Source: Streptomyces sp. 11x1
GTDB lineage: Bacteria; Actinomycetota; Actinomycetes; Streptomycetales; Streptomycetaceae
Length of the DNA stretch: 64,000 nt
NCBI RefSeq assembly: GCF_032598905.1
Contig: NZ_CP122458.1
Coordinates: forward strand, 9,325,001-9,389,000
Reading direction: 5' to 3'
The notes beneath the pieces are model-generated. The model was not told where the DNA came from, searched no databases, and was given only the letters and a program-made list of their open reading frames with translations. A program made the translations under genes and the position numbers. Of the stretch, positions 9,112 to 60,639 are shown piece after piece (position 1 is the stretch's first letter; each line of letters starts with the position of its first letter).

Positions 9112-9137
9112 CGGCGTGGGGGTGCGTGTGTCGGTCG

Positions 9138-9218
9138 GGCTGCGGGAGCGTCGTGGTTGCTCGCGCCCACGCGGCGCAGCCGCATATCGACACGGCCCCG
9201 CGCCCCTTCAGGGCTCGG
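9138..9218 (-). repeat. Dispersed intergenic repeat, copy 3 (long form)
   Basis: Read on the minus strand, this copy begins with ggggcgcggggc and ends with cgcgagcaaccacgac, like the short form. The five bases aactg are replaced by about 30 bases that carry their own hairpin (gcggc-tgc-gccgc). It separates the acyl-CoA dehydrogenase from the TenA-like gene. Confidence 0.7.
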
Positions 9219-9265
9219 GCTGTCATCAGCGGTGACGACACGTCCCCCCCCGACAGGAGTGCCTG

Positions 9266-38701: not shown

Positions 38702-39049
38702 TAGCCCTTGTGTGCACGGATTCACGCGAATTCGCCTGACCCGGAACGTCCCCAGCGGCACCTGGACCGGCACGCGGGCCGCCGCCCTGGTCCGGCAGTA
38801 CGACGGGGCGAACGCGAAGTCTCCACCGGGGTCGGCCATTTCTGGCCGTACGGGCTCAACTGCGACAACGAGTTCTCCGGCACGGCGGCCGACCGGCACG
38901 TCCGGATCGTCTCCGCGATGGTCAGCGACGGGCTCTGACTCCCGTGACGGCAGCGGCGGTTGGTGCCCGGTGACAAAGGCACGGACGGTGGCTGCGTTGT
39001 TGTGAGCACGGGGCGGTCGGGCCGCGCTCGCGGTCCTACCGTCCCCAGC
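38702..39049 (+). pseudogene. Short degraded coding remnant before the secreted hydrolase gene
   Basis: Two frames carry protein-like pieces in tandem: NVPSGTWTGTRAAALVRQYD near 38747-38806, then in another frame HFWPYGLNCDNEFSGTAADR with VRIVSAMVSDGL ending in a TGA at 38936-38938. This looks like a frameshifted gene end. I do not recognise the parent. After 38940 no gene is seen before the next start, and no Shine-Dalgarno sequence precedes that start. Confidence 0.35.
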
Positions 39050-40780
39050 ATGAACACGACTCACAGCAGAGGAAAGACCTCACGACCACTGCGCAGCGCC
39101 GCGCTGGCGGTGCTGCTGACCGTCGGGGCGGTCACCGGCGCCGCCCCGGACGCCCGGGGCGAGAGCGCGCGCACCGAGACGGCCGTCGCGTCGACGAGCC
39201 CCGTCGACGACGTGACCGAGACCCTGGTCCGGGTGCGGGCACCCCTGCCGGCGTCCTTCGGAGCGCGGCCGGCGGCGTGCGACTGGCTGTCGTACCTGCG
39301 CTACCGATCCGCCGACGGGCCCGCGGCCTCGGCGGACGCGGACCGGATCCTCGTCGCCCAGCCGGGCATCCTGGAAGGCGCCGGAGCCTTCGACAGCGTC
39401 GCCCGCAACACCGTCGCCCGCGCCGCCGCACGGGGCCGGCACATCGAGTTCTGGGCCCTGGACCGACGCTCCAACTGCCTGGAGGACCGCACCGGCGTCG
39501 CCTCCGGCGACCAGCACACGGCCGTCGACTACTACTACCGGGACAAGCGGGTCGACGGCCGCACCTTCGACGGCTACGTCGGCAACGCCGACCTGGGCTG
39601 GACGGCGAAGCTCGGGATCGAGCGGACCGTCCGCGACCAGTACGACCTGCTCACCGCCGAACTGCCCGACCAGCGGGTGCGCGAGGAGAAGGTGCTGTGC
39701 GGCGGGCACTCGCTCGGCGGAGTCATCACCGGGTACTTCGCGACCGCCGACTTCGACGGCGACCGGACCACCACGGCCGACGCCGGGCACCGCCAGTGCG
39801 CCGGCTACTTCGCGCTCGACACCACCGTCTCCACCTCGCTCGCCGACCTCAGCGGCAGCATCCCCGACGACACCAACCTGCCCGACATCGGCCTCGGCTA
39901 CGGCGCCGTGCAGGCCGGGCTCGACAGCGGAATCCTCTCCCGCACGCTGTCCGCGCCGGTGCTCCTCAACCCCGAGATGATGACCCTGCTGGCCATCGCC
40001 GGCCTCGGCGCGCTGCAGGACCTGGACGGAGAGGCCACCCTGCCCCGGTACCTGCCCCTCAACACCAACATCGAGGTCACCAACCGCTTCCTGTTCTCCG
40101 AGGACACCGCCACCTTCCTCTCCGGCTCACCGGCGGTGCGGGACTTCCGGCTCACCAACGAGGCGATCCTCGGCGCGCTGATGGACGACCACTCCGTACC
40201 GCTGGCGTTCCTCCAGAGCAGCGTGGGCTTCTTCGACGGCGGGCCGATCGCCGACAAGAACTTCCCCGTCGCCAACGGGAGTTCCGCTGAACCGGCGCTG
40301 TTCGGCAGCGAGTACAAAGCCATCCCCGACCGGCCGGGCGGCCCCCTCTACACCTGGCGCGACTACGACCGGGTCGGCGACCCCGACGACCCCGGGTACC
40401 GGTCGGCCGACGGCACCCCGTTCACCGACGCGGGCAAGGAGGTCACCGACATCCAGGAGTTGGCCCGCAGCATGGCACAGCAACCGCTGGACTTCACCGA
40501 GCAGTACTTCCCCACCAAGCTCGTCACCGACCTCCAACTCGCCACCTCGCCCCAGGTGAAGCGCCTCGTCGTCCACCCGGACGGCCTCACCGCCGACCCG
40601 ACGCTCACCGTCCTCGCGGGCGACGGCCTGCTCGCGGGCCGCGTCCCGGCCGACCTCGACCCCGTCGTCGCCGACGGCTACCAGCACCTCGACGTGCTCA
40701 CCGCGGCACCTGTCCAGAACAACGGCCGCTCCGAGCCCGTCTCCACCAGCCTGACGGAGTTCGCGAGGAACCCCGCGTAG
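39050..40780 (+). CDS. Secreted alpha/beta hydrolase
   Basis: A 576-residue exported protein. A signal peptide covers about residues 15-40 (LRSAALAVLLTVGAVTGAAP). The nucleophile elbow is CGGHSLGGVITGYF near residue 220, the GHSxGG form of lipases and esterases. RILVAQPGILEGAGAFDSVA resembles the oxyanion region. The C-terminal third includes PQVKRLVVHPDGLTADPTLT and DGYQHLDVLTAAP, where the catalytic His is expected. Substrate is unknown; the size is large for a simple esterase. The ATG at 39050 lacks a clear ribosome site. Confidence 0.75.
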   Translation: MNTTHSRGKTSRPLRSAALAVLLTVGAVTGAAPDARGESARTETAVASTSPVDDVTETLVRVRAPLPASFGARPAACDWLSYLRYRSADGPAASADADRILVAQPGILEGAGAFDSVARNTVARAAARGRHIEFWALDRRSNCLEDRTGVASGDQHTAVDYYYRDKRVDGRTFDGYVGNADLGWTAKLGIERTVRDQYDLLTAELPDQRVREEKVLCGGHSLGGVITGYFATADFDGDRTTTADAGHRQCAGYFALDTTVSTSLADLSGSIPDDTNLPDIGLGYGAVQAGLDSGILSRTLSAPVLLNPEMMTLLAIAGLGALQDLDGEATLPRYLPLNTNIEVTNRFLFSEDTATFLSGSPAVRDFRLTNEAILGALMDDHSVPLAFLQSSVGFFDGGPIADKNFPVANGSSAEPALFGSEYKAIPDRPGGPLYTWRDYDRVGDPDDPGYRSADGTPFTDAGKEVTDIQELARSMAQQPLDFTEQYFPTKLVTDLQLATSPQVKRLVVHPDGLTADPTLTVLAGDGLLAGRVPADLDPVVADGYQHLDVLTAAPVQNNGRSEPVSTSLTEFARNPA

Positions 40781-42365: not shown

Positions 42366-43010
42366 TCAGACCTTCGTCGCGGCGAAGGCTGCCGCCGCGT
42401 CGGCGTTCGCGGAGTAGCCGAGGTGGGCGCCCACGTCACCGCCGCCGTTCTCGCACACGGGGTCTCCGGTCGCGCAGAAGTCGATGGTGCGGCTCTGGTA
42501 GGTGCCGGTGACGCTCTTGCCGATGGCCCGGATCGGGTTGCCGAACAGCAGGACCGCCGAGACCCTCGGTTCGAGCGCGGCGGGGATGGTGGCCACGATG
42601 GGGCTGCCGACGACCGCGCCCGCGCTGCTGATGCCGATGGAATTGTCGACGACGTTCGCGCCCTGCGAATAGCCGACCAGGATGAAACGCTGGCTCGGGC
42701 AGGACGCAGCCTGGCTCCTGACGTGGTTCACCAGATCCGTGTTGCCCTGCGCGGCCGATGTGAGAGAAAGGTCCGCGGGGTAGTTCACCTTGTAGCTGGA
42801 CAAAGATTTTCCGGTGATTTTCTTCTTCAGCGCGGAATACACGGGGTCGCCGACGATGAAGCCGAGCGTGCCCGGCTCGAAGGTGCCGCGAGCGGCGACG
42901 ACGTCGATGTCCGTGCAGGCCGCGGCGGCGGTGGCGGCGGGTGCCGAGGCGGTGGCCAGTCCGGCCCCGCCGACCAGCGAGAGTGCGGCGAGACACAAGC
43001 GGATACGCAT
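42366..43010 (-). CDS. Secreted cutinase-family esterase
   Basis: A 214-residue exported serine esterase. AAAGGA precedes the ATG; the signal ends near APAATAAAA. The mature protein begins CTDIDVVAARGTFEPGTLGF, typical of cutinases. The nucleophile is in ILVGYSQGANVVDNSIG. The catalytic Asp and His are expected in FCATGDPVCENGGGDVGAHL, with the disulfide cysteines. Cutinases cleave ester bonds of cutin or lipids. A cutinase-like protein (Rv3802c) also belongs to the mycobacterial mycolate locus, which matters because the Pks13-like genes are just upstream; but free-living Streptomyces cutinases are common too. Confidence 0.9.
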   Translation of the reverse strand: MRIRLCLAALSLVGGAGLATASAPAATAAAACTDIDVVAARGTFEPGTLGFIVGDPVYSALKKKITGKSLSSYKVNYPADLSLTSAAQGNTDLVNHVRSQAASCPSQRFILVGYSQGANVVDNSIGISSAGAVVGSPIVATIPAALEPRVSAVLLFGNPIRAIGKSVTGTYQSRTIDFCATGDPVCENGGGDVGAHLGYSANADAAAAFAATKV

Positions 43011-43186
43011 GGGGATCCTTTGAGGGTGGGGCGCGTGGAGCGCCTGCGGAAAGGACTTCCCGAAGTTATTCGCTGGGTCGGGCCGAGTGTTATGGACGGG
43101 AATTCAGTAATCGCTTTTCTTTTTGCGCCGGGATGAGTCCGTGGTGAGTCCGTCTCGTGCGCCGACGTTTCGTCCTCTCGATCTCG

Positions 43187-44419
43187 CTACGCGGTGAACG
43201 TGTCGTCCTCGCGCAGTGCCTCCGCGCGCAGGGCGAGGATCAGGTCCAGGCGGGTGCCGGAGTCGTGCAGGGCGTCGCCGAAGAGCTTCTCCAGCTGCCG
43301 CAGGCGGTAGCGGACCGTCTGCGGATGGATGTGGAGGCGGGCGGCGACATCGGGCACGTTGCTGCCGCTGAGCAGCCACGCCAGGAGGGTCTCGGCCAGT
43401 CGGCCCCGGGGGCCTTCCGCCACCGCGTCCAGCGGGGCCAGCGCCCGTGACCGGAGCTGCGCGAGCATCGGTTCGTCGCCGTACAGCAGAAGCGTCGACA
43501 GATGGTCGGCGCAGCGCACCACCCCCTGCCGGGGCAGGATCCCGCGCCCCATCAGACCGAGTGCGCGGGCGGCCCAGTGCAGAGAACGGGACGCGTCGGC
43601 GAGCGGGACCGTCGGGCCGATCGCGGCGGGCCTGCCGCGCAGCGCCAGCGTGAACGCCCGGCCCCCGAAACGGCCGGAACCCTCCGGGTCGGGCACCAGC
43701 ATCCGGGGTGGCCGGGAGCCCATGTCCACCAGCGCGCCCGCCGCCGCGAGCGGCCGTTCCGCCTCCCGCCGGTCCGGGGTGGCCGCCAACGCCACGACCG
43801 CGACCTGCCGCGGCACCGTCCACCGGGCGGCGTGCGCCAGGTCCCGCACCGCCTCCGGGGCCACCGGCCCCTCGCCGAGCAGGACGTCGAGCAGCCGCCT
43901 GCGCCGCCGCTCCAGCTCGTCCGTGCTGCGCAGCTGCGCCTCCGAGTAGCCGGCGGCCGCCGCCTCGGCGACCTCGTGCACGGTCCGGAACGCCAGCTCG
44001 CCCAGCGCCGCCACCACCGAGGAATCCAGGCCCAGTTGCTCCGCCGAACGGCCCATCAGCCGCCACGCGTGCAGGCCCCCCACCCGCAGCGCCGACTGCA
44101 ACGAGTCCAGGCCACGGCCCTCCAACGCCACGCCGCGCCCCAGCGCGTAGTACGTCGCCGTGATGGCCGCCCCCTGTCCGTGCGGATCGGCGATGTGGTC
44201 CACGAACAGCGTCAGCGCCTGCACGACCCCCGAGCGGAGATGCGCGCGGAACTCCCCGTCCGCGGGCTGGGCGTACTCCGGGACCTGCCGGCGCACCTCC
44301 TCCTCCACCTCGTCGGCGACGGCCTCCAACTGGCCGCGCAGCAGCCTGGCGAGCTCGGGCGGCACGGGGGCGGCACCGGGACCGTCCGGTGGACCGTGCG
44401 GCGGGGTGGGGGCAGCCAC
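43187..44419 (-). CDS. PucR-family transcriptional regulator
   Basis: A 410-residue regulator. AAAGGAGGG precedes the GTG at 44419, which I choose over a much longer open frame. The N-terminal sensory region spans about 1-180. A GGDEF-like PucR middle region follows. The C-terminal helix-turn-helix (LAETLLAWLLSGSNVPDVAA, then RLHIHPQTVRYRLRQLEKLF) is the HTH_30 type. It lies downstream of the esterase gene on the same strand, separated by 122 bases, and may regulate the lipid-synthesis genes. Confidence 0.9.
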   Translation of the reverse strand: MAAPTPPHGPPDGPGAAPVPPELARLLRGQLEAVADEVEEEVRRQVPEYAQPADGEFRAHLRSGVVQALTLFVDHIADPHGQGAAITATYYALGRGVALEGRGLDSLQSALRVGGLHAWRLMGRSAEQLGLDSSVVAALGELAFRTVHEVAEAAAAGYSEAQLRSTDELERRRRRLLDVLLGEGPVAPEAVRDLAHAARWTVPRQVAVVALAATPDRREAERPLAAAGALVDMGSRPPRMLVPDPEGSGRFGGRAFTLALRGRPAAIGPTVPLADASRSLHWAARALGLMGRGILPRQGVVRCADHLSTLLLYGDEPMLAQLRSRALAPLDAVAEGPRGRLAETLLAWLLSGSNVPDVAARLHIHPQTVRYRLRQLEKLFGDALHDSGTRLDLILALRAEALREDDTFTA

Positions 44420-44541
44420 GGCGGACCCTCCTTTCGCCCGGAGGCGGCTCACCCGCGGGCCGGTGCCCGTGGGGCGAGGGGCAAGTCCTGGGTTGGACGG
44501 ACGCTCCCTGCGCTCCGTTCCGTGCCCCGACGGCAGCGGCC

Positions 44542-45594
44542 TCACGCGGGCACTCCCAGCGCACCGGCGAGCATCGGCCACGACGCCGTGAACTCCCGCT
44601 TCCAGTACGCCCAGCTGTGTCCTCCGCCCGCGTAGAAATGGGTCGTCACCGGGATCCGTAGCAGCGCCAGCCTGTCCGTGAACGCGTGGGCGGACGGCCA
44701 CAGCGCGCTCTCGAGTGCCTCGGGGAGCCAGTCGCCGACGCCGCCGACCACTCCGCTGCCGCTCGACACGTACAGGGCGGTGCCGCGCAGCCCCGCCGCG
44801 CGCGAACGCGGGTTGAAGTCCCGCCAGGTGAGCACGTTCTGGAGGTGGTTGCCCCACAGCGACAGGGGCGCGAGTCCCTCGCGGGCCACGATGGCGCCCA
44901 TCAGGGTCGGCACGCCGGGGGCCGTCGTGTCGAGGATGCCGCTGTACGAGGCCGCCGCGGCGAAGACCCCCGGGTGCCGTGCCGCGTGCGCCATGGCCCC
45001 GTAGCCGCCCGTCGAGACACCGGCGACGACCCGGACCCCGGACGCCCGGTACTGCCGGGCGAGCAGCGCCGGGACCTCCCCGACCTGGAAGGTCTCGTAG
45101 TCCGGGCCGCTGCGCCAGGCGGTGGGGATGCCGGTCGGGCCCGCGTCCGGCATGGCCACGATCAGCTCACGGCCTGCCGTGAACGCCTCGATGTCCGTTT
45201 CCCGGGTCCATGACGTGTGGTCGTCGTGCGCGCCGTGGAGGAGGTACAGCACGGGATACGTCCGGGTGGGCCGCGCGTCGAAGGAAGTGGGGAGGATCAG
45301 CCGCACCGGGGCGCTGCGGCCCAGGGCGGCGGAGGGGAGGGAGACGTCGAGCGTCCGGGGGCCGAGGCGCGTGACGGTGGCGGGGCCGGGGACGGCGGTG
45401 GGGGCGGTGGTCCCGGGGGCCGTCCGGCCGGTGCGCCGGGCGAGGGGCCGGGACACGGTCGCCCCGGCGGTACCGGTGGTCGCGGCACCGAGGAGGGCGG
45501 CCAGTCCGGTCACGGCGGCCGCTCTGGTGACGGTGCGACGGGACGGCGCGGCGGTGCGGTCGGTCCGGTCGCTGGGGTCGATGGGCTCGGGCAC
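44542..45594 (-). CDS. Exported Ag85/esterase-D-type acyltransferase or esterase
   Basis: A 350-residue alpha/beta hydrolase of the esterase D family (PF00756), which includes the mycolyltransferases Ag85/Fbp. A Tat-like signal is present (SRRTVTRAAAVTGLAALLGA). The oxyanion region is YLLHGAHDDHTSW, the nucleophile Ser194 lies in AGVSTGGYGAMA, and the His in HFYAGGGHSWAYWKRE. The gene begins 21 bases after the Pks13-like gene on the same strand, so it is in the operon. By analogy with Fbp proteins it may transfer or hydrolyse the lipid product at the surface. It could instead be an ordinary esterase; family membership alone does not decide. Confidence 0.85.
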   Translation of the reverse strand: MPEPIDPSDRTDRTAAPSRRTVTRAAAVTGLAALLGAATTGTAGATVSRPLARRTGRTAPGTTAPTAVPGPATVTRLGPRTLDVSLPSAALGRSAPVRLILPTSFDARPTRTYPVLYLLHGAHDDHTSWTRETDIEAFTAGRELIVAMPDAGPTGIPTAWRSGPDYETFQVGEVPALLARQYRASGVRVVAGVSTGGYGAMAHAARHPGVFAAAASYSGILDTTAPGVPTLMGAIVAREGLAPLSLWGNHLQNVLTWRDFNPRSRAAGLRGTALYVSSGSGVVGGVGDWLPEALESALWPSAHAFTDRLALLRIPVTTHFYAGGGHSWAYWKREFTASWPMLAGALGVPA

Positions 45595-45615
45595 GGCGGC
45601 TCTCCTCGGCTCGGT

Positions 45616-48600
45616 TCAGGGGTGGTCGTCGGCGAGCTCCCACCGCAGATGGGCGGCGATCTCGTCGACGTGCGGGGGGTCGAGCAGCGACAGATGGTGC
45701 CCCGTGACCCGGACGACGGTCAGCCGCCGGCACAGCTCGTCCCAGCCGAGCGCCTCGTCGTCCCGCACGTACGCGGGGTCGCGCACGGTGTGCGGGGCGG
45801 GCTCGGTCGCCCGGTACAGCACCACCCGTCCGTCGTGGCGGCCCGGGCTGTGGGCCTCGCCGATCCGCAGGTCCACATAGGAGGTCCGCTGGTGCTCGAG
45901 GGCCGCGCGCGGCACGTCGACGGCCTCGCGCAGGGCCTCCAGCACGGTGTCGATCCGCGCGCCGTCGTCCTGTGTCACGGCCAACTCCGCGTACGGAAGC
46001 CGCAGTTCGACCCCGTAGGTGTCGGCGACATGGCGGGCGAAACCGGTGAGGTGGGCGCGGATCCGTGCGGCCGGCGTCTCCTCGGGGCGGGGGAGCGGGC
46101 GTACGGAGTCGATGAGCACCACCAGGCGTACGTCCCGTCCGGCGGCCGTGAGCTGCCGTGCCGTCTCCTGCGCGACGAAGCCGCCGAACGACCAACCGCC
46201 CAGCAGGCACGGGCCGTCGGGGTGCACGGCGGCCACGGCCTCGGCGTACCGCCGGGCCTTCTCGGCGACCGTACGAGCCTCGTCGACCCGCTCCAACCCG
46301 AACACCGGCCGCTCCCCGCCGAGCCGCTCGACGAGACCCCGGTAGACGTCGGTGGTCCCTCCGGCGGCGTGCACGAGGAAGAACGGGGGGTGGGAGCCGG
46401 AGGTGTGGAGGGGGCGGAGGAGGGGGTGGGCCGTGGCGGGGGAGCGCAGGGGAAGGGCGAGGGGGCGGAGTGGCTGAGGCGGCACAGGGGAGCCGGCGGC
46501 GGTGTGCGGCGGTGTCTGCCGCTGGACCTCCCCGTCCGCTGCCGCCTCCGCCGGCAGCGCCCGTTGGATGCGGGACGCCGTGGCCTCGACCGTGCCGGCG
46601 CCCAGCAGGTCCCGCAGGGGGAGCTCTATGTCGAACTCGCGCTCCAGGGCGGTGCGGACGCGGACGGCCATCAGGGAGTCCAGGCCCAGTTCGGCGAAGG
46701 CGGTGGCGGGGGTGATGCGGGCCGGCGGGTACCCGGTGACGGCGCTGATGTGGTGGCAGAGGCGGGCGGTGACGGAGGTGTCTTCCTCGGCGAGCCACGC
46801 CGTTGGCCCGAGGGCGGTGTGCGGGCCGGGACCGAGGTGTCCGTCCGGCTGCCGGTCGCCGTCCGGCGAGGGGACGGCGCGCGGGGCGCCGAACTCCGGC
46901 CCGGCGCCCCGGGACATCGGCCCTCCGGATCCCCCCTCCGCGGCACGGCCCTCACCCGCCGAGCCGTCCGAGCCCCGGACGCGGCGACCGGGGACCCCAC
47001 GGTTCTCCACGGTCACCCGCACCCCGCCGAACTCTCGGCCCCCGGTGCCCTCTGCGGTTCCCCAGCCCGTTCCCGCGCCTCCCGCTCGGCCGTCCGTCCA
47101 CCAGTGCCGTGTGTGCCGCCAGCGCGGCGCCGGCAGGTCGATGACGCGGCCCGGAGGGCGTGGGAGCCGCGCTCCGGCCGTGTGCAGGGCGGCCAGGCGG
47201 GTCAGGAAGTCGGCGGAGGTGTCGGCGTCCCGGTGGAGCGTGCCGAGGGCGAGGGCGCCGGGCGCGTTGTCCGTGATCGCCCGGGTCAGGACCGGGTGGG
47301 GGGAGAGTTCGACGAACACGGTGTGGCCGTCGGCGGCGGCCGCGGCGACCGCGCGGTCGAGACGGACGGGCCGCCGCAGATTGGCGGCCCAGTGCGCCGC
47401 GTCGAACAGGCAGTCGCCGCGCGGATCGTCCAGCACGGTGGAGTAGACCGGGATGCGGGGGAGCGCGCCCCGGACGTGGGCCAGCTCGGCCGTCAACTCC
47501 GGGAGCAGCGGGTCCACCTGGGCCGAGTGACCCGCCCCGACCACCCTCATCGCCCGCGCCGCCCGCCCCTCCTTCTCCAGCCGCCCCACCAGCCGGGTGA
47601 CCGACTCCCCGTCCCCGGTCACCACCTTCTGGCAGGGAGAGGAGTGCACGGCGACCTGGACTCCCGGGAAGTCCCTTGCCAGCAGAGGGAGTTCGCTGTC
47701 GTCGAGGTCGACCACCGCCATCGCCCCGCCCCGCAGCCCGCTGAGCAGCCGGGCCCGTACGGCCACCACCCGGGCCGCGTCCGACACCTCGAGCGCGCCC
47801 GCGCACACCGCCGCGGCGACCTCGCCCAGGGAGTGCCCGATGACGGCGGCGGGCTCGACACCGTGCGCGCGCCACAGCTCCGCCAGGGCCAACTGCACAC
47901 CCAGGAGGACGGGTTGGGCCACCGCCAGTCGGTCGAGGTCGCCGCCGGAGGCCAGGTGGTCGTAGAGGGAGAGCCCGCATTCGGGGGCCAGCAGCCCGTC
48001 CAGTTTCTCCACGACCGCGGTGAAGGCGGGCTCCTCGGTGAGGAGCCGGCGTCCCATGCCGGTCCACTGGCTGCCGTACCCGGAGAACACCCACACGGGC
48101 CCGCGCCCGACGACGTCACGGTCGCCCACCAGCACCCGCGCATGGGGTCGCCCCGCCGCCAACGCCCGCAGTCCGTCGGTCAGTTCGGCCCGGTCGGCGG
48201 CGACGACCGCCGCCCGCACCGGCCCTCGTCCCGCCCGTCCGGCGAGGGTTCTGGCCACGTCTGCGGGGTGCGCGGCGGCGCCCTCGGGCGTGTCCGCCCA
48301 GTCGGCGAGCCGGGCGGCGGTGTCGCGGACCCGGTCGGCGTCGACGTCGGAGAGGAGGTGGAGCCGGGCCGGGGCTTCCTCGGCCGGAGGCGGGAGCGGG
48401 GCGCCGGGCCGCCATTCCTCCAGTACGGCATGGGCGTTGGTGCCGCCGAACCCGAACCCGGAGACCCCGGCGGTGGCCGTGCCGCCGTACCGGGGCCACG
48501 GCTCGGCCTCGGTCACGACCCGCAGCCGTTCGTCGCCGTCCAGGGCGCTGCCCTCGGCGCAGTGCAGCGAGGGCGGGATCAGGTCGTGGTGGAGCGCGAG

Positions 48601-50109
48601 CACGGTCTTCACCAGCCCGGCGATGCCCGCGGCGGACTCCAGGTGACCCAGGTTGCCCTTGACCGAGCCGAGGAGCAGGGGCTGGCCGGGGTCGCGGCCC
48701 GTACCGAGGACGGCGCCCAGCGCGCCCGCCTCGATAGGGTCGCCGAGGGGTGTGCCGGTGCCGTGCGCCTCGACGTGGTCGATGTGCGCGGGGGAGAGCC
48801 CGGCTCGCGCGTAGGCGGTCCGCAACAGGTCCTGCTGGGCGGCCGGGTTGGGGGCCAGGAGGCCGTTGGAGTGGCCGTCGGAGTTGACGGCGGTGGCCCG
48901 GACCACGGCGAGGATCCGGTCGCCGTCCCGTTCGGCGTCGGACAGGCGTCTCATCAGGACGGCGGCGCAGCCCTCGCCCCGGCCGATGCCGTCGGCCGCC
49001 TTGGAGAACGGCTTGCACCGGCCGTCCTGCGCGAGGGCGCCCGCCCGCCGGAACGCGACGGTGACGGTCGGGGAGAGCAGCAGGTTCACCCCGGCGGCGA
49101 TCGCGAGGTCGCTCTCGCCCGTGCGCAGACTGACGCACGCGTGGTGCACGGCCACCAGCGACGACGAACACGCGGTGTCGACGGCCATGCTCGGCCCCCT
49201 GGTGTCCAGGACGTACGCCAGTCGGCCCGCCGTCACGCTCAGCGCCCCGCCGGCCGGTGCCCAGGGGGCGACGGTGGCCGGGTCGGCGCCGGTGAGCTGC
49301 CCGTACTCGGGCGCGGAGACACCGACGAAGATGCCGGTGGCGCTGCCCGCGAGGGAATCGGCGGGGACGGCGGCGTGGTCGAGGGTCTCCCGCACGACCT
49401 CCAGCAGGATCCGCTGCTGCGGGTCCATCACCGCGGCCTCGCGCGGGGTGGTACGGAAGAAGTCGGCGTCGAACCCGGCGATGTCGTCGAGGTAGCCGCC
49501 GTACGGGAGTGCGTCGGCGGGCGGGTACGGCGTGAAGTCCCGCCACCGGTCGTCCGGGACCCGCCGGATCGCGTCGACACCGTCGAGGAGCGATCGCCAG
49601 TACTCCGCCGGTCCGTGCACCCCGCCCGGCAGCCGGCACCCGACCCCGACGACCGCGACCGGCTCACCGGATGCGGGCGCCCGCCGTGCCGGGGCTCTCG
49701 GAGCGGGGTCCGGGGCCGTCGGAGCGAAGTTCGCGGCCGGGACTGCGTCCGGCACCGGAACCGGCCGCGCCTCCGTGGCGCACACCCGTGCCACCAGCGC
49801 GTCCCCGGTGGGCGCCTCCCACAGCAGCGTCGCCGGTAGTTCCCGGCCCGTCGCCCGGGACAGTTCCCCGGCCAGGACGACCGCGTCCCGGGAGGACATC
49901 CCGAGATCCGCGAGCGGCCGGTCAATCGGAACCTCCTCGGTGGCCAGGCCGCTCCAGTCGGCCACCCGCGCCGCGACCAGCCGCCGGACCGCACCTTCCC
50001 CGCCGTCGGCGGACAGCCGGCGCGGACCGCCCCCGCCGGCCTCCGCGCCCCCTCTTCCGCGCCCGTCGGGGCTGTCGCCGTCGACCCCACCCTCGCCCAC
50101 GACCCTCAT
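45616..50109 (-). CDS. Pks13-like type I polyketide synthase (ACP-KS-AT-ACP-TE)
   Basis: A 1497-residue synthase. The N-terminal carrier domain (about 35-110) reads LADLGMSSRDAVVLAGELSR, with Ser73 as the likely pantetheine site; the SSRDAV form is that of Pks13. The ketosynthase (150-570) has Cys314 in VDTACSSS, His449 in EAHGTGT and His489 in KGNLGHLES. The acyltransferase (670-960) has Ser760 in GHSLGE, an RARL motif and GAGH at the extender-specificity position. A second carrier domain holds Ser1145 in ELGLDSLMAV, and the thioesterase has Ser1307 in GGWSFGG. No reductase, dehydratase or methyltransferase is present, so the product should be a beta-keto condensation product. The start overlaps the ligase stop in atga. 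Confidence 0.92.
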   Translation of the reverse strand: MRVVGEGGVDGDSPDGRGRGGAEAGGGGPRRLSADGGEGAVRRLVAARVADWSGLATEEVPIDRPLADLGMSSRDAVVLAGELSRATGRELPATLLWEAPTGDALVARVCATEARPVPVPDAVPAANFAPTAPDPAPRAPARRAPASGEPVAVVGVGCRLPGGVHGPAEYWRSLLDGVDAIRRVPDDRWRDFTPYPPADALPYGGYLDDIAGFDADFFRTTPREAAVMDPQQRILLEVVRETLDHAAVPADSLAGSATGIFVGVSAPEYGQLTGADPATVAPWAPAGGALSVTAGRLAYVLDTRGPSMAVDTACSSSLVAVHHACVSLRTGESDLAIAAGVNLLLSPTVTVAFRRAGALAQDGRCKPFSKAADGIGRGEGCAAVLMRRLSDAERDGDRILAVVRATAVNSDGHSNGLLAPNPAAQQDLLRTAYARAGLSPAHIDHVEAHGTGTPLGDPIEAGALGAVLGTGRDPGQPLLLGSVKGNLGHLESAAGIAGLVKTVLALHHDLIPPSLHCAEGSALDGDERLRVVTEAEPWPRYGGTATAGVSGFGFGGTNAHAVLEEWRPGAPLPPPAEEAPARLHLLSDVDADRVRDTAARLADWADTPEGAAAHPADVARTLAGRAGRGPVRAAVVAADRAELTDGLRALAAGRPHARVLVGDRDVVGRGPVWVFSGYGSQWTGMGRRLLTEEPAFTAVVEKLDGLLAPECGLSLYDHLASGGDLDRLAVAQPVLLGVQLALAELWRAHGVEPAAVIGHSLGEVAAAVCAGALEVSDAARVVAVRARLLSGLRGGAMAVVDLDDSELPLLARDFPGVQVAVHSSPCQKVVTGDGESVTRLVGRLEKEGRAARAMRVVGAGHSAQVDPLLPELTAELAHVRGALPRIPVYSTVLDDPRGDCLFDAAHWAANLRRPVRLDRAVAAAAADGHTVFVELSPHPVLTRAITDNAPGALALGTLHRDADTSADFLTRLAALHTAGARLPRPPGRVIDLPAPRWRHTRHWWTDGRAGGAGTGWGTAEGTGGREFGGVRVTVENRGVPGRRVRGSDGSAGEGRAAEGGSGGPMSRGAGPEFGAPRAVPSPDGDRQPDGHLGPGPHTALGPTAWLAEEDTSVTARLCHHISAVTGYPPARITPATAFAELGLDSLMAVRVRTALEREFDIELPLRDLLGAGTVEATASRIQRALPAEAAADGEVQRQTPPHTAAGSPVPPQPLRPLALPLRSPATAHPLLRPLHTSGSHPPFFLVHAAGGTTDVYRGLVERLGGERPVFGLERVDEARTVAEKARRYAEAVAAVHPDGPCLLGGWSFGGFVAQETARQLTAAGRDVRLVVLIDSVRPLPRPEETPAARIRAHLTGFARHVADTYGVELRLPYAELAVTQDDGARIDTVLEALREAVDVPRAALEHQRTSYVDLRIGEAHSPGRHDGRVVLYRATEPAPHTVRDPAYVRDDEALGWDELCRRLTVVRVTGHHLSLLDPPHVDEIAAHLRWELADDHP

Positions 50110-51857
50110 CCCTCGCTCTCCACCGCGTAGGCACCCGCCAGGTAGCGCTCACGGGTCGACGTCCGCGAGACCTTTCCGCTGGACGTCCGGGGCACCGCCC
50201 CCGGCGGGACGAGGACGACGTCGGCGAGCCGCAACCCGTGCCGGGCGGAGACGGCCGCGCGCACGGTCCGCACGAGGGCGGGCACGTCGATGTCGGCGAG
50301 CGGCACCGTCCGCGCGTGCTCCGCGACGACGACCACCCGCTCCCCGGCACCGCCCGGTACACCGAACGCGGCGAGCCGGTCGCGCCGTACGGCAGGGTGC
50401 GCCTCCTGGGCCGTGGCCTCCACGTCCTGCGGGTAGTGGTTGCGCCCGTCGACGACGATGAGGTCCTTCAGTCGCCCGGTGACGATCAGTTGCCCCTCCA
50501 GGACCGTCCCCAGGTCGCCGGTCCGCAGCCATGCGCCCGGACCGGACGCGGTGTCCGCGAGCACGGCGCCGAAGACCTGCCGGGTCTGCCGGTCCCGATT
50601 CCGGTAGCCCCGGCCGACATTGGGGCCCTGCACCCAGATCTCGCCGACCTCGCCCTCGGCCGGCGCGACCCGGGACACCGGGTCGGCGATCCGGACCCGC
50701 TGGCCCGCCGGCGCACCGCAGCCGGCCAGCAGCACGGCCCTCGGGTCCTCGGGGCGCGCGGGCAGGGCCTTGCCGGCGGCCAGCGCGTCCCGGTCGAGCG
50801 CGAATCCGCGCAACGGCTCACCGGGCCGGGCCGCGCTGACGAAGACGGTCGCCTCGGCCAGGCCGTACGACGGACAGTGCGTCTCCGGGACGAGGCCCTG
50901 CGCGGCGAACGCCGCGTGGAAGCGGTCGGCGGTGCCGGGACGGACCGGCTCGCTGCCGTTGATCAGCGCCAGCACCCCGTCCAGGCGCAGCCCCGCCTTC
51001 TGCGCCTCGGTGACCGCCGAGGCGCAGTAGTCGTAGGCGAAGTTGGGCGCCGCGCTCAGGGCGCTCGGGTACGCGGCCAGCAGCCGCAGCCAGCGCACCG
51101 GCTCGTGCAGGAACGCCACCGGGTCCATGAGCACCGACAACAGCCCCCGCACCACAGGCGCCGCCACACTCAGCACCAGCCCCATGTCGTGGTAGAGCGG
51201 CAGCCAGCCCACACAGGTCGCCGGGCGGGCGTCGGCACCGTAGGCGGACAGCGCCTGGCGGGCGTTGGCGACGACATTGGCATGGGTGATCTCGACTCCC
51301 GCCGGGGTCCGGGTGGAGCCGGAGGTGTACTGGAGGTACGCGACGGCGGTGGCATCGGGCGTGGACGGCGGCCGTTCGTCATCGGCGGCCGAGTCCGGGA
51401 TCCGGTCCACGGCGACGACCCGGACCGCCCGGCCCTCGCACAACTCCTCGACCTCCGCCAGGACTTGGCTCGTCGTGACGACGACCGCCGGGGACGCGTC
51501 GGCCAGCACCGCCGAGAGCCGGTCGCCCTGCCCGGGCAGACCGGGCGGATACAGCGGTACGGCGACCAGGCGGGCGGCGAGCGCCCCGAGGAAGGCGGTG
51601 ACGTACTCCGTCCCCTGCGGGCACAGCACCGCGACCCGCTCCCCGGGCTCGGCCTCCGCCGCGAGCCGGGCGGCCGCGGCCCGCACCCGCAGATCCAGCC
51701 GACGCCAGGTCAGGGTGCGGTGGACGCCGCGCGACTGCGGCGCGGGATGGTCGACGAAGGTGAACGCCCGGCGGTCGGGAGTGGTCTCGGCCCAGTGGCG
51801 CACATACTCCGGCAGACTCCGGAACGCGGGCGCGAGCGGGGGGCGGCGGCTGTCCAT
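50106..51857 (-). CDS. Fatty acyl-AMP ligase, FadD32-like
   Basis: A 583-residue adenylate-forming enzyme that activates a fatty acid as acyl-AMP and loads it on a carrier domain rather than on CoA. The family motifs are YLQYTSGSTRTPAGVEITHA, GWLPLYHDMGLVL, APNFAYDYCA, WLRTGDLG and VDGRNHYPQDVEATAQEAH; all match FadD32-type ligases. The ATG at 51857 (MDSRRPPLAPAFRSLPEYV) is the family's start. Its stop overlaps the Pks13-like start, so the two are translationally coupled. It most likely loads the N-terminal ACP of that synthase. Confidence 0.93.
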   Translation of the reverse strand: MDSRRPPLAPAFRSLPEYVRHWAETTPDRRAFTFVDHPAPQSRGVHRTLTWRRLDLRVRAAAARLAAEAEPGERVAVLCPQGTEYVTAFLGALAARLVAVPLYPPGLPGQGDRLSAVLADASPAVVVTTSQVLAEVEELCEGRAVRVVAVDRIPDSAADDERPPSTPDATAVAYLQYTSGSTRTPAGVEITHANVVANARQALSAYGADARPATCVGWLPLYHDMGLVLSVAAPVVRGLLSVLMDPVAFLHEPVRWLRLLAAYPSALSAAPNFAYDYCASAVTEAQKAGLRLDGVLALINGSEPVRPGTADRFHAAFAAQGLVPETHCPSYGLAEATVFVSAARPGEPLRGFALDRDALAAGKALPARPEDPRAVLLAGCGAPAGQRVRIADPVSRVAPAEGEVGEIWVQGPNVGRGYRNRDRQTRQVFGAVLADTASGPGAWLRTGDLGTVLEGQLIVTGRLKDLIVVDGRNHYPQDVEATAQEAHPAVRRDRLAAFGVPGGAGERVVVVAEHARTVPLADIDVPALVRTVRAAVSARHGLRLADVVLVPPGAVPRTSSGKVSRTSTRERYLAGAYAVESEG

Positions 51858-52008
51858 CGGGCATGGCTCCTCACGGCGCGGGACGGCTTGCGGTCGCGGC
51901 GGCCACGGCGGAAGACGGCGGTGACGGCCGTGGCGGGGGTTCGGCTGATGGCGGCGCCGGGCGCGGGACTCGGCGCGCACGACGGGGCGCGCACGGGCGG
52001 AGGCGCGC
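51858..52008. other. Spacer inside the lipid-synthesis operon
   Basis: These 151 bases separate the carboxylase and ligase genes. Acyl-CoA carboxylase beta genes are sometimes followed by a small epsilon-subunit gene, but no such short frame is convincing here. No clear hairpin was seen, so transcription may run through. Confidence 0.4.
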
Positions 52009-53631
52009 TCAGAGCGGGATGTTGCCGTGGCGCCGTTCCGGCATCGGGGCCCGCTTGCCGCGCAGGGCGCGCAGGGCGCGGCAGATGTGGGCACGGGTGT
52101 CGTGCGGGGCGATGACGGCGTCCACGTACCCGTGCTCGGCGGCGAGGTACGGCGTCCCGTACGTGCTCTCGTACGCGGTGACCAGGCGGGCCCGCAGCGC
52201 CTCGGGGTCCTCCGCGGCGGCGAGTTCGCGGCGGTGCAGGACCCCCACCGCGCCCTCGGCGCCCATGACGGCGATCCGGGCGGTGGGCCAGGCGAGGTTG
52301 ATGTCGGCGCCGAGGTGCTTGGAGCCCATCACCGCGTATCCGCCGCCGTACGCCTTGCGCACCACCACCGTGACTTTGGGGACGGTCGCCTCGGCGTAGG
52401 CGTACAGCAGTTTGGCGCCGCGCCGGATGATGCCGGCCTGCTCCTGGCGGACGCCCGAGAGATAGCCGGGGACGTCGGCGAAGGTCAGCAGGGGGATGCC
52501 GAACGCGTCGCAGAACCGCACGAACCGCGCGGCCTTCTCGGAGGCGTCGATGTCGAGGACCCCGGCCGAGCGCAGCGGCTGGTTGGCGACGACACCGACC
52601 GAGGCGCCCTCGACGAGAGCCAGCGCGCAGATGATGTTCGGCGCGAACAGCGCCTGGATCTCCAGGAGTTCACCGTCGTCGACGACCGCGCGCAGCACGT
52701 CCCGCATGTCGTACGCCTGGCCGGGCCGGTCCGGCACCACCGTGTCGAGGCACGGCCCCGCCGGCGCGGCACCCGGCGCGTACTGCGGGGGCCGCTCCAG
52801 GTTGTTGGCGGGCAGGTACGACAGCAGGTCGCGTACGGTGTCGAGGGCGTCGACCTCGTCGGCGGCGAGGAAGTGGGCGTTGCCGTTGACGGTGTTGCTG
52901 GCGCGGGCGCCGCCCAGCTCCTCGGCGCTGGTGCGTTCGCCGGTGACGGTCTCGATGACGTCGGGTCCGGTGACGAACATGTGCGAGGCGCCGTCCACCA
53001 TCACGGTGAAGTCGGTGATGGCCGGGGAGTACGCGGCCCCGCCCGCGCAGGGGCCCAGCACGACCGAGATCTGCGGGATCACTCCGGACGCCTGGACGTT
53101 GCGGCGCACCAGTTCGGCGTAGAGGGCGAGGGAGGTGACGCCCTCCTGGATGCGGGCGCCGCCGCCGTCGTTGAGCCCGATGACCGGACAGCCGGTCTTC
53201 AGGGCGAGGTCCATCAGCGCGAGCGTCTTCTCCCCGAAGGCCTCGCCCATGCTGCCGCCGTACACCGTGGCGTCCTGGGCGAAGACGCAGACCTGACGGC
53301 CGTCGATCGTGCCGTGGCCGGTGACCACCCCGTCGCCGTAGGGGCGCCGGACGCCGTCCCCGGTGGGCCGTGCCCGCACGAACAGGCCCGTCTCCGTGAA
53401 CGAGCCGGCGTCCAGCAGCAGATCGATCCGCTCGCGGGCCCCGTGCTCCCCGCGTCTCCTGGGCCCGACCGGCAGGAGGGCCCGCGTCCGGCGGCCCTCC
53501 AACTCCGCGATGCGGTCGGCGGTTCGGTCGCGGGCGGGCTCAGGGACCGGCTGGGCGACCGGCGCGGACACGCGGCCGGGCGCACGTTCCGCCACCTGCC
53601 TCGTCCGGGATGTCGTCACCTCTAGCGTCAC
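52009..53631 (-). CDS. Acyl-CoA carboxylase carboxyltransferase beta subunit, AccD4/PccB type
   Basis: A 540-residue carboxyltransferase that moves CO2 from carboxybiotin to the alpha carbon of an acyl-CoA. Visible motifs are GLNDGGGARIQEGV, SVVLGPCAGGAAYSPAITDF, SNTVNGNAHFLAADE and PGYLSGVRQEQAGIIRRGAK, ending GNIPL as in PccB proteins. The GTG at 53631 has GGAGG at good spacing; a GTG six bases upstream overlaps that site. The biotinylated alpha subunit is not in the window. Its place ahead of the ligase and the Pks13-like gene suggests that it makes the carboxyacyl-CoA extender. Confidence 0.9.
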   Translation of the reverse strand: MTLEVTTSRTRQVAERAPGRVSAPVAQPVPEPARDRTADRIAELEGRRTRALLPVGPRRRGEHGARERIDLLLDAGSFTETGLFVRARPTGDGVRRPYGDGVVTGHGTIDGRQVCVFAQDATVYGGSMGEAFGEKTLALMDLALKTGCPVIGLNDGGGARIQEGVTSLALYAELVRRNVQASGVIPQISVVLGPCAGGAAYSPAITDFTVMVDGASHMFVTGPDVIETVTGERTSAEELGGARASNTVNGNAHFLAADEVDALDTVRDLLSYLPANNLERPPQYAPGAAPAGPCLDTVVPDRPGQAYDMRDVLRAVVDDGELLEIQALFAPNIICALALVEGASVGVVANQPLRSAGVLDIDASEKAARFVRFCDAFGIPLLTFADVPGYLSGVRQEQAGIIRRGAKLLYAYAEATVPKVTVVVRKAYGGGYAVMGSKHLGADINLAWPTARIAVMGAEGAVGVLHRRELAAAEDPEALRARLVTAYESTYGTPYLAAEHGYVDAVIAPHDTRAHICRALRALRGKRAPMPERRHGNIPL

Positions 53632-53898
53632 AGCCACCTCCGAAGTGGCTTACGAATATGGCAGCGAAGGAGGGGGCGACCGGACCGATCCCCGTTCTGT
53701 TTGCGGGAGATGAGTCCTTCGGGGCCCGGGTTCGTCCGTGGGTGACAAGGGTCCGGCGCGACTCCTGTGTCAGGCCCGGTGTCACCTACGCCTGCGCGGG
53801 CAGACCCTCACCGACACCGGTATCACCGTCACCCCGAACGTCGACCAGCCGGGCCGCACCCAGTTCACCGAGCGCTGACCCGTGGGAAGGGTGAGGGC
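53632..53898. other. Divergent intergenic region with a possible gene remnant
   Basis: This holds the promoter of the lipid-synthesis operon (a less GC-rich part, cttacgaatatggc, near 53649) and that of the aminotransferase. At about 53791-53878 one plus-strand frame reads LRGQTLTDTGITVTPNVDQP and ends GRTQFTER at a TGA. It looks like the end of a lost gene, but I do not recognise it. Confidence 0.4.
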
Positions 53899-55080
53899 AT
53901 GGACATCGACGCACTGCGCCGGGACACCCCCGGCACCGCCCACCGAATCCATCTCAACAACGCCGGAGCGGCCCTGGTCTCCCGGCAGACCCTGGACGCC
54001 GTCACCGCCCACCTGGAACTGGAGGCGACCATCGGCGGCTACGAGGCGGCACGGCAGGAGCAGGACCGCATCGACGCCACCTACACCGACCTCGCCCGCC
54101 TGATCGGCGGACGCCCCGACGAGATCGCCCTGTTCGACAACTCCACCCACGCCTGGAGCGCCGCGTTCTACGCGCTCACCTTCAAGCCGGGCGACCGCAT
54201 CCTCACCGGCCGGGCCGAGTACGGCAGCAATGTGCTCGCCTACCTCCAGGCCGCCCGGCGCACCGGCGCGGAGATCGTCGTCGTCCCCGACGATCCGTCC
54301 GGACAGCTCGACACCGCCGCCCTCGCCGACCTGATCGACGAACGCACCCGACTGGTCGGAATCAGCCACATCCCCACCAGCGGCGGCCTGATCAACCCGG
54401 CGGCCGAGATCGGCCGGATCACCCGCGCCGCCGGGGTCCCCTACCTCCTCGACGCCACCCAGTCCGTGGGCCAGTTCCCGGTGGACGTCGAGACCATCGG
54501 CTGCGACATGCTCAGCGCCACCGGCCGCAAGTTCCTGCGCGGCCCGCGCGGCACGGGCTTCCTCTGGGTGCGCACCGAGGCGCTGGAGTACCTCGACCCG
54601 AACGTCATCGAGATCCACTCGGCGACCTGGGACGGCGGACGCGGCTTCACCTGGCAGCCCGGCGCCCGCCGCTTCGAGACCTGGGAGACCGGCTACGCCA
54701 GTGTCCTGGGCCTCGACACGGCCGTGCGCCAGGCCCTCGACCTGGGCCTGGACCGCATCGGCGACCGCGCCCTGGCCCTGGGCGCGTACCTGCGCGACCG
54801 GCTCGACGCCCTGCCCGGCGTCACCACCCACGACCTCGGCGAACACCGCTGCGCCATCGTGACCGCCAAGGTCGACGGCCTGGCCGCGACCGAGGTCGCC
54901 GCCGGTCTCGCCCGGCACGGGATCAACGTCACCACCACCTTCCCGGAGCACACCCAGTTCGACACCGAACACCGGGGCGTGCACCCCCTGGTGCGGCTCT
55001 CCCCGCACTACTACAACACCGAGGCCGAACTCGACCGCACCGTCGAGGTCATGGCCGACCTCGCCCGCACCGCACGCTGA
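53899..55080 (+). CDS. Class V aminotransferase
   Basis: A 393-residue PLP enzyme of the isopenicillin-N-epimerase/cysteine-desulfurase-like class. AAGGGTGAGGG precedes the ATG at 53899. LNNAGAALVSRQTLDAVTAH starts the fold. The cofactor aspartate is in PYLLDATQSVGQFPVDV and the Schiff-base lysine in SATGRKFLRGPRGTGFLW. The end includes HPLVRLSPHYYNTEAELDR. Whether it desulfurates, racemises or transaminates is not decidable. It diverges from the lipid-synthesis operon. Confidence 0.9.
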   Translation: MDIDALRRDTPGTAHRIHLNNAGAALVSRQTLDAVTAHLELEATIGGYEAARQEQDRIDATYTDLARLIGGRPDEIALFDNSTHAWSAAFYALTFKPGDRILTGRAEYGSNVLAYLQAARRTGAEIVVVPDDPSGQLDTAALADLIDERTRLVGISHIPTSGGLINPAAEIGRITRAAGVPYLLDATQSVGQFPVDVETIGCDMLSATGRKFLRGPRGTGFLWVRTEALEYLDPNVIEIHSATWDGGRGFTWQPGARRFETWETGYASVLGLDTAVRQALDLGLDRIGDRALALGAYLRDRLDALPGVTTHDLGEHRCAIVTAKVDGLAATEVAAGLARHGINVTTTFPEHTQFDTEHRGVHPLVRLSPHYYNTEAELDRTVEVMADLARTAR

Positions 55081-60600: not shown

Positions 60601-60639
60601 TCCGTGTCGTCACCTGGCCGGGCGCCGCAGGCGACGTAG
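59371..60639 (+). CDS. tnpB: TnpB RNA-guided nuclease of an IS605-type element
   Basis: A 422-residue TnpB. The RuvC residues are intact: Asp203 in LGVDWGVKET, Glu293 in IAVEDFRPKF and Asp374 in SPRDKNSARV. The zinc ribbon is complete, CALC near 344-347 and CTAC at 364-367. The N-terminal part (YTYRLRVSSTARTALAAEWD) matches the family. The C-terminus runs on about 35 residues (GAGRGGSVSSPGRAPQAT) through what should be the guide-RNA region and element end. GAGGGGG precedes the ATG. TnpB cuts DNA using an RNA made from its own 3' end, which helps to keep the element. Confidence 0.93.
   Translation: MAQVAAAAETVHARYTYRLRVSSTARTALAAEWDRCRWVWNECVAKSRAVHLHNKATGEKATCGPAQLDRMLTEARARTPWLREGSSVVQQQAIRDFGRSRAKAHKDIEACLPMARRAGMPKWKFKREALATLNYTRRGFRLKDGRLHLAGGIVAGVVWSRDLPAEPSSVRVYQDSLGHWYGSFVVPAQVQPLPETGRALGVDWGVKETATTTSDAHDLPHVGHGRKAKVHLTRYDRMMARRRPKKGQPGSKGYREAKRLRAKAHKKVARQREDTARKWAKKVVRDHDAIAVEDFRPKFLARTTMARKAADAAIGATKAALIEMSRKHGRDIRLVHPAYTTMDCALCDARAKHRLPLGERTYTCTACGTASPRDKNSARVMLVRAGLNPVGADGTPSGRGTGARGAGRGGSVSSPGRAPQAT

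What the first reader, a model, noticed from the sequence alone, without database searches (positions are those of the whole stretch)
42366..53631. A mycolate-condensation-like locus in a Streptomyces-type genome
Four genes in a row on one strand encode an AccD4/PccB carboxyltransferase, a FadD32-like acyl-AMP ligase, a Pks13-like ACP-KS-AT-ACP-TE synthase (all active residues present) and an exported Ag85/esterase-D-family enzyme. A cutinase gene follows further on, as Rv3802c does in Mycobacterium. These are the functions that condense two fatty acids into mycolic acid and transfer it. Streptomyces are not known to make mycolates. No ketoreductase is nearby, so the expected product is an alpha-alkyl beta-keto acid or ester. 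The locus could make a new long-chain branched lipid, perhaps attached to a sugar or exported.
Basis: partly seen in the sequence, partly recalled or inferred. Interest (0 to 1): 0.92.

Follow-up and report, generated by a model that had tools for sequence, protein, structure and literature searches.

The report
Pks13-like branched-lipid locus in Streptomyces
A conserved Streptomyces gene cluster carries relatives of the two enzymes that join fatty acids into mycolic acids in mycobacteria, so soil bacteria thought to lack such lipids probably make a related branched fat of unknown structure.

Summary

The set is conserved. In 62 Streptomyces loci of this type, among those with enough flank, FAAL is present in 57 of 57, esterase 58/58, carboxyltransferase 55/57, cutinase 53/56.

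The condensing core is kin to the mycolate condensase (unrooted trees): KS-AT with Pks13 against 20 other PKSs (100/100), FAAL with FadD32 (98/94); TE scores 145 bits to Pks13, 72 to the next. With a distant outgroup the KS root is unresolved.

The rest is not mycolate machinery: the carboxyltransferase is PccB-like with an opened acyl pocket, the esterase lies outside the mycoloyltransferase clade, the cutinase is the orthologue of the suberinase Sub1.

Best reading: one Claisen condensation giving an alpha-alkyl beta-keto lipid, then transfer and export (acceptor and export inferred). Nine longer relatives add KR; five of them lack DH catalytic residues, predicting mycolic-type beta-hydroxy acids. 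In S. scabiei the locus is listed as a cryptic PKS cluster. A new branch of the Pks13/FadD32 kind, not a mycolate locus.

The parts
52009..53637 (-). Acyl-CoA carboxyltransferase beta subunit (CCT), PccB-like, with Val177/Ala435 in place of Phe/Asp in the acyl pocket
   Evidence: Pfam; pocket residues; tree. Start GTG 53637 or 53631
50106..51857 (-). Fatty acyl-AMP ligase (FAAL), grouping with FadD32 (open frame from 52094; probable start ATG 51857)
45616..50109 (-). Single-module synthase ACP-KS-AT-ACP-TE, Pks13-like; no KR or DH found
44542..45594 (-). PF00756 esterase/acyltransferase with a Tat-like signal, nearest solved structure PS1 of C. glutamicum
   Evidence: that PS1 is from C. glutamicum is recalled
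43187..44419 (-). PucR/CdaR-type transcriptional regulator (GTG start with AAGGAGG RBS)
42366..43010 (-). Secreted cutinase, orthologue of S. scabies Sub1 suberinase
38960..40780 (+). Probable secreted alpha/beta hydrolase (GHSLGG), no Pfam hit; conserved neighbour, membership uncertain

Best explanation
The locus encodes a Pks13/FadD32-type lipid condensase that works outside the mycolate bacteria. (1) The FAAL adenylates a fatty acid and loads it on the N-terminal ACP (inferred from family and from the Pks13-type ACP). (2) The CCT, with alpha subunit(s) encoded elsewhere (recalled for this enzyme class, not searched), carboxylates a second, longer-than-C4 acyl-CoA to an alkylmalonyl-CoA (inferred from two pocket residues). 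(3) The AT loads it on the C-terminal ACP and the KS makes one decarboxylative Claisen condensation, giving an alpha-alkyl beta-keto thioester (inferred from domain order and conserved residues). (4) The Pks13-like TE releases it, probably onto a hydroxyl acceptor such as a sugar or polyol, otherwise as an acid that decarboxylates to a ketone. (5) The exported esterase transfers or trims the acyl group outside the cell; PucR controls expression; the cutinase Sub1 is a companion secreted esterase. Shown here: gene set, conservation, kinship of the core, residues. Not shown: any product.
For: Domains and residues. KS-AT with Pks13 100/100 against 20 others; KS alone 95/92 against 35. FAAL with FadD32 98/94, 18 of 20 comparison FAALs outside. 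TE: Pks13 144.7 bits, next chain 71.9. 'SR' at the phosphopantetheine Ser in 56 of 56 short, 9 of 9 long and 20 of 20 Pks13 pattern hits upstream of the KS, against 1 of 22 in other PKSs. CCT pocket: Ala in 59 of 60 at the PccB Asp421 site (1 unreadable), no Phe in 60 at the Phe160 site (V54 A3 G3); AccD4 likewise (14 of 14 Ala, 0 of 14 Phe); 8 of 9 comparison CCTs keep Phe; MccB structure read in PMC5187497 section 9. AT motif GAGH in 56 of 58 readable short and 8 of 9 long, neither YASH nor HAFH. Linkage: FAAL 57/57, EST 58/58, CCT 55/57, PucR 55/57. Pks13 TE loads trehalose (passages of PMC9210659 and PMC11649247).
Against: The trees are unrooted; with a distant FabF-type outgroup the deep KS nodes collapse. 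Equivalog cut-offs are not met: Pks13 1176 of 2100 bits, FadD32 504 of 975, and the FAAL scores higher on a general FAAL model (562; cut-off 775 also not met). In solved structures named FadD32 ranks below two chains called acyl-CoA synthase and FadD23. A Pks13-model search of the own genome at 1e-200 listed six other modules (732-774 bits) and not this PKS, whose match is split into stretches. Carboxyltransferase and esterase are not from the mycolate families. No exporter or reductase in the operon. Two of 57 loci have no CCT nearby. AT specificity cannot be read firmly from one motif.
Confidence: 0.7

Rival explanations
1. An ordinary one-module polyketide synthase: a fatty-acyl starter extended with malonyl- or methylmalonyl-CoA to a beta-keto or alpha-methyl beta-keto lipid or a pyrone-type secreted metabolite, with the PccB-like enzyme merely topping up methylmalonyl-CoA.
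For: CCT tree position is with PccB-type enzymes; single-module architecture; listed as 'Type 1 PKS, cryptic' in S. scabiei.
Against: The two pocket positions tied to C4-or-less substrates are replaced in all readable rows; AT motif GAGH rather than YASH/HAFH; kinship of KS-AT, TE and FAAL to the Pks13 pair; constant linkage to an exported esterase.
Confidence: 0.17
2. Part of a plant-polyester programme: the lipid is a surfactant or adhesin (or the enzymes handle suberin fatty acids), and the cutinase Sub1 and esterase act on cutin or suberin rather than on the locus's own product.
For: Cutinase is Sub1, a suberinase by the title and abstract of PMC7104285; window neighbours include a GH5-CBM2 cellulase, a GH30-lectin protein, a CE2-type esterase and a GH3 protein.
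Against: The cutinase stays with the lipid genes in 53 of 56 loci, many of species I recall no plant disease for; within 10-kb flanks GH30 is found in 10 and CE2 in 9 of 71 loci; the S. scabiei gene SCAB_78961 did not respond to cello-oligosaccharides.
Confidence: 0.25
3. A true mycolate locus acquired from Corynebacteriales by horizontal transfer, making cell-wall mycolates.
For: Kinship of KS-AT, TE and FAAL with Pks13/FadD32.
Against: The Streptomyces type forms its own branch beside, not inside, Pks13 and FadD32; CCT, esterase and cutinase are not the mycolate ones; gene order differs.
Confidence: 0.03

Closest known systems
Pks13-FadD32-AccD4 mycolate condensation system (Corynebacteriales)
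   Same: ACP-KS-AT-ACP-TE order, Pks13-type N-ACP motif, KS-AT and TE kinship, FAAL grouping with FadD32, open-pocket carboxyltransferase, neighbouring PF00756 exported enzyme and cutinase
   Different: CCT is PccB-like; esterase outside the mycoloyltransferase clade; Sub1-type cutinase; PucR regulator; order CCT-FAAL-PKS-EST instead of fadD32-pks13-accD4; no room for a DH* domain (55-95 aa between my AT and ACP cut points in 10 short forms)
MccB-type medium-chain acyl-CoA carboxylase (stambomycin pathway; PMC5187497)
   Same: Asp to Ala and loss of Phe in the acyl pocket
   Different: serves a large modular PKS; here a single-module Pks13-like synthase with a FAAL; MccB itself was not in my tree
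S. scabiei 87-22 BGC 27a (SCAB_78881-79041), 'Type 1 PKS, cryptic, unknown' (PMC8914351)
   Same: very probably the same locus in S. scabiei: core gene SCAB_78961, and Sub1 three tags away by interpolation; L019 is its sequence
   Different: only listed there; no link to Pks13 seen in the passages read
PS1 mycoloyltransferase (PDB 6sx4)
   Same: best solved-structure match of the esterase, 4.4e-36 over residues 85-348
   Different: separate clade

Membership tests
Pks13 mycolic condensase | ACP-KS-AT-ACP-TE domain order with catalytic residues | tested here: met
Pks13 mycolic condensase | KS-AT groups with Pks13 to the exclusion of other actinobacterial PKS | tested here: met
   unrooted 100/100: 9 Pks13 rows and 16 locus rows (8 short, 7 long, query) versus 20 others; KS alone with a FabF-type outgroup is unresolved
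Pks13 mycolic condensase | NCBIfam NF040607 equivalog cut-off 2100 bits | tested here: not met
   1176.4 bits
Pks13 mycolic condensase | Pks13-type thioesterase | tested here: met
   144.7 bits against 71.9 for the next chain
Pks13 mycolic condensase | DH* domain between AT and second ACP | tested here: not met
   55-95 aa there in 10 of 11 short forms tried, against 185-216 in 18 of 21 Pks13 frames, by motif cut points
Pks13 mycolic condensase | Product is a mycolic acid precursor | not testable with these tools
   needs lipid chemistry
FadD32 | Groups with FadD32 among FAALs | tested here: met
   98/94 group of FadD32 plus locus FAALs, unrooted; beside FadD32, not inside it
FadD32 | NCBIfam NF038339 cut-off 975 bits | tested here: not met
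   504.3 bits
AccD4 | Groups with AccD4 | tested here: not met
   AccD4 (14 rows) separate at 100/100; locus CCTs with PccB types
AccD4 | Long-acyl pocket (no Phe160, no Asp421) | tested here: met
Ag85/PS1 mycoloyltransferase | PF00756 fold with invariant Ser, Glu and His | tested here: met
   S194, E295, H326 invariant in 26 aligned sequences; that these are the Ag85 triad is recalled
Ag85/PS1 mycoloyltransferase | Inside the mycoloyltransferase clade | tested here: not met
   split 98/96; four Streptomyces/Embleya plasmid esterases fall on the locus side
Rv3802c/Culp6 | NCBIfam NF050160 cut-off 570 bits | tested here: not met
   21.8 bits
Sub1 suberinase | Identity with cloned sub1 at the S. 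scabiei locus | tested here: met
   both published primers (annealing parts) match the L019 cutinase; the one mismatch is in the stop codon
Mycolate pathway at large | Arabinogalactan, MmpL3, CmrA in the genome | not tested
   no search made; the last genome search did not complete

The most novel reading that the evidence does not exclude
Mycolate condensation is one twig of a wider actinobacterial lipid-condensation family. Forms in Amycolatopsis, Herbihabitans, Saccharopolyspora, Planobispora and some Streptomyces are ACP-KS-AT-DH-KR-ACP-TE with the KR Ser, Tyr and Asn kept in 9 of 9; in 5 of 9 the DH His and Asp are lost, so those should make alpha-alkyl beta-hydroxy (mycolic-type) acids in one polypeptide, in bacteria regarded as mycolate-free. 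The non-catalytic DH* half-domain of Pks13 would be the relic of such an ancestor, its KR replaced by stand-alone CmrA, while the window's type lost both and makes beta-keto lipids.
Probability: 0.35. Interest if true: 0.9.

Novelty: new variant of a known kind. Interest (0 to 1): 0.74.

Why it matters
Mycolic acids mark the Corynebacteriales and are a major drug target; where their condensation machinery came from is, to my knowledge, not settled. A relative of the FAAL-condensase pair, conserved in dozens of Streptomyces and linked to an exported esterase, gives a comparison group for that origin and predicts a class of branched lipids for which I found no report. It also places a characterised suberinase, Sub1, beside a lipid synthase in 53 of 56 loci checked.

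Tried and rejected
A plain horizontal transfer from mycobacteria: rejected, the Streptomyces branch lies outside Pks13/FadD32. AccD4 orthology: rejected. Cutinase as Rv3802c counterpart: rejected as homology. Esterase as a true mycoloyltransferase: not supported (that tree warns of two long branches meeting). KS tree with FabF-type outgroup: deep nodes unresolved. tblastn of the PKS against plasmids at 1e-150: no match, although one record (L183) holds a relative, so that negative has no weight. Simple promoter/terminator scan: nothing. DH* by profile: 97.5% over 139 columns, but the post-AT linker alone gives 96.9% over 45 columns with the short forms, so only suggestive.

Rows dropped: trees used 12 to 15 of the 62 short loci (7, 8), 7 of 9 long (5 of 9 plus L162 and L183 in the FAAL tree; L162 was called long by FAAL similarity only), and 14, 9 or 8 of the Pks13 rows at hand; searches used 20 of 34 other KS-ATs. 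No AccD4 was found in region L148, so AccD4 rows are 14 of 15 regions. Linkage counts leave out loci whose flank was too short, and count a hit on the right side and strand anywhere in the flank held, not strict adjacency. Prevalence across the genus was not measured; one search matches six exact peptide patterns and is a lower bound.
Full report
What is there. On the minus strand the window carries, in order of transcription: a carboxyltransferase (52009-53637), a FAAL (50106-51857; open frame to 52094), an ACP-KS-AT-ACP-TE synthase (45616-50109), a PF00756 esterase with a Tat-like signal (44542-45594), a PucR-type regulator (43187-44419) and a cutinase (42366-43010). Gaps are 151, -4, 21, 122 and 176 bp. 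The window lies at 9.33-9.39 Mb of a 10.67-Mb genome in 2 contigs. A search of that genome gave three FAAL hits at 1e-30 and one hit, the gene itself, to this esterase at 1e-5.

Conservation. One scan of named genome contigs returned 71 loci: 65 Streptomyces, 2 Amycolatopsis, 2 Planobispora, 1 Herbihabitans, 1 Saccharopolyspora. I 'short' (window type, all Streptomyces) and 9 'long'. In short loci with enough flank, on the expected side and strand, FAAL is found in 57 of 57, esterase in 58 of 58, carboxyltransferase in 55 of 57, PucR in 55 of 57, cutinase in 53 of 56, and a secreted hydrolase beyond the cutinase in 49 of 56. The exceptions are L057 and L077 for CCT and PucR, plus L053 for the cutinase. 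In the 9 long loci an esterase of the same Pfam family (39-46% identical to the window's) is present in 9, a FAAL within 10 kb in 8, a CCT in 4; those 4 have the order FAAL-PKS-CCT-EST, as fadD32-pks13-accD4 has in the annotated Rhodococcus locus. Within the same flanks GH30 is found in 10, CE2 in 9 and the PLP enzyme in 5 of 71 loci.

Kinship of the synthase. The best solved structures are Pks13 (824 bits, next MAS 666), and the best NCBIfam model is Pks13, 1176 bits against a cut-off of 2100. In a Pks13-model search of the own genome at 1e-200, six other modules were listed and not this PKS, whose match is split into stretches. An unrooted KS tree puts Pks13 (14), short (15), long (7) and the query together at 95/92 against 35 other KSs. 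A KS-AT tree gives 100/100 against 20 others, with Pks13, the short type and several long lineages as an unresolved radiation. With a distant FabF-type outgroup the deep KS nodes collapse, so the root is not shown. Other signs agree: the TE matches Pks13 TE at 144.7 bits against 71.9 for the next chain, and the N-terminal ACP has Ser-Arg at the phosphopantetheine site as Pks13 does (56 of 56 short, 9 of 9 long and 20 of 20 Pks13 pattern hits upstream of the KS, against 1 of 22 in other PKSs). Catalytic motifs are conserved in most readable rows. The AT motif is GAGH in 56 of 58 readable short and 8 of 9 long forms; Pks13 has GASH.

Kinship of the ligase. The unrooted FAAL tree joins FadD32 (14 rows, with two other mycobacterial FAALs inside), short and long FAALs at 98/94; three further mycobacterial FAALs lie just outside (98/91) and the other 15 beyond. 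By plain score the FAAL fits a general FAAL model (562 bits) better than FadD32 (504), and among solved structures FadD32 by name ranks fourth and fifth.

The carboxyltransferase. It is not AccD4: AccD4 stands apart at 100/100 and the locus enzymes fall with PccB-type enzymes. Its pocket is opened nevertheless. The site of PccB Asp421 is Ala in 59 of 60 rows (one unreadable), and the site of Phe160 is Val in 54, Ala in 3, Gly in 3. AccD4 shows the same two features (14 of 14 Ala; 0 of 14 Phe), while 8 of 9 comparison enzymes keep Phe and none of those 8 has Ala at the Asp421 site (D 3, I 4, C 1). In MccB of the stambomycin pathway these two positions are held to admit chains longer than C4 (PMC5187497 section 9 read). 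Which MccB position maps to which window residue is my alignment through PccB numbering.

The esterase and cutinase. The esterase's best solved match is PS1 (4.4e-36), and Ser, Glu and His are invariant in 26 aligned relatives; NCBIfam gives only weak matches to a PHA depolymerase and S-formylglutathione hydrolase. In a tree it lies, with four Streptomyces/Embleya plasmid esterases, on the far side of a 98/96 branch from the Corynebacteriales mycoloyltransferases. Two of those four records show no PKS nearby; the other two are not annotated there. A crude twin-arginine pattern is found in 57 of 62 esterases with a readable motif. The cutinase is the orthologue of Sub1. The published primers match the S. 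scabiei 87.22 locus cutinase, the reverse one with a single difference in the stop codon. The tags fit: Sub1 is C9ZCR8, SCAB_78851 and SCAB_78891 are C9ZCR0 and C9ZCR4, so Sub1 should be SCAB_78931 by interpolation, three tags from the PKS SCAB_78961. Sub1's activity on suberin, cutin and PET is from the title and start of abstract of PMC7104285.

The long relatives. Pfam on 3 of the 9 synthases shows DH and KR between AT and ACP; motifs were read in all 9. The KR Ser, Tyr and Asn are kept in 9 of 9; the nucleotide motif is TGGxGxLG in 6, and one glycine is replaced (TGGLTGLG) in the three Streptomyces forms. The DH His and Asp are kept in the Amycolatopsis, Herbihabitans and Saccharopolyspora forms (4) and lost or altered in the two Planobispora and three Streptomyces forms (5). 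A KR-active, DH-dead form should give an alpha-alkyl beta-hydroxy acid, the mycolic motif; the Planobispora pair is the clearest case. Mt-Pks13 has a non-catalytic DH* half-domain after its AT (PMC11649247 section 21 read). Its profile aligns with the long forms' DH region (97.5%), though part of that is the common post-AT linker. This suggests, without proving it, that Pks13 descends from a DH-KR-bearing ancestor and that the window's type lost both domains.

Mechanism. FAAL-loaded starter plus CCT-made alkylmalonyl extender, one Claisen condensation, TE release onto an acceptor, then action of an exported esterase. In M. smegmatis without the mycolate reductase, beta-oxo precursors were still found esterified to the wall and ketones accumulated (abstract of PMC2568869; section 5 also read), which shows that an unreduced product of this kind can be made, transferred and decarboxylated. 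Acceptor, chain lengths and export are inference.

Literature. Ten searches showed, in their listings (titles and abstract starts; several capped, for example 20 of 1,416), no paper that links Pks13/FadD32 relatives to Streptomyces loci. The library holds open-licence papers only. PMC8914351 lists the S. scabiei cluster as BGC 27a, Type 1 PKS, cryptic, unknown, with no significant response of SCAB_78961 to cello-oligosaccharides (passages).

Verdict. It is a new branch of the Pks13/FadD32 kind.

Noticed in passing
L189 (Rhodococcus ruber plasmid pmega_4, NZ_CP145323.1 27238-58101): A 74-kb linear plasmid record carries a complete fadD32-pks13-carboxyltransferase locus with cutinase, PS1-like enzyme, glf and an arabinosyltransferase gene; a true plasmid copy or a chromosome piece is unclear.
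   Followed up: no
L197 (Streptomyces sp. NBC_00846 plasmid, carboxyltransferase at 7920-9578): A carboxyltransferase with both open-pocket residues (Ala, Ala) lies near a 28-kb type I PKS gene: a candidate alkylmalonyl-CoA supplier.
   Followed up: partly
L036/L062 and L031/L063: S. violaceoruber NRRL S-981 and S. cellulosae NRRL B-2687 each carry both the short and the long (DH-KR) type.
   Followed up: no
window 38960-40780 (+): Probable secreted alpha/beta hydrolase without a Pfam match, kept beyond the cutinase in 49 of 56 loci.
   Followed up: partly
window 59371-60639 (+): IS605 OrfB/TnpB-like gene (Cas12f1-like TNB domain).
   Followed up: no
L178, L180: Two Mycobacteriaceae FAALs, distinct from those genomes' pks13-linked copies, fall inside the FadD32 clade.
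   Followed up: no
window 53767-55080 (+): Class-V PLP enzyme (EgtE/SufS-like), divergent from the operon but found in only 5 of 71 related loci.
   Followed up: no
NZ_LT559118.1 (L183): An 11.85-Mb 'plasmid I' of Nonomuraea gerenzanensis looks like a chromosome; it holds a PKS stretch 49% identical to the window's (6124-8862, minus strand) beside an esterase of this family, with a FAAL about 15 kb away.
   Followed up: partly
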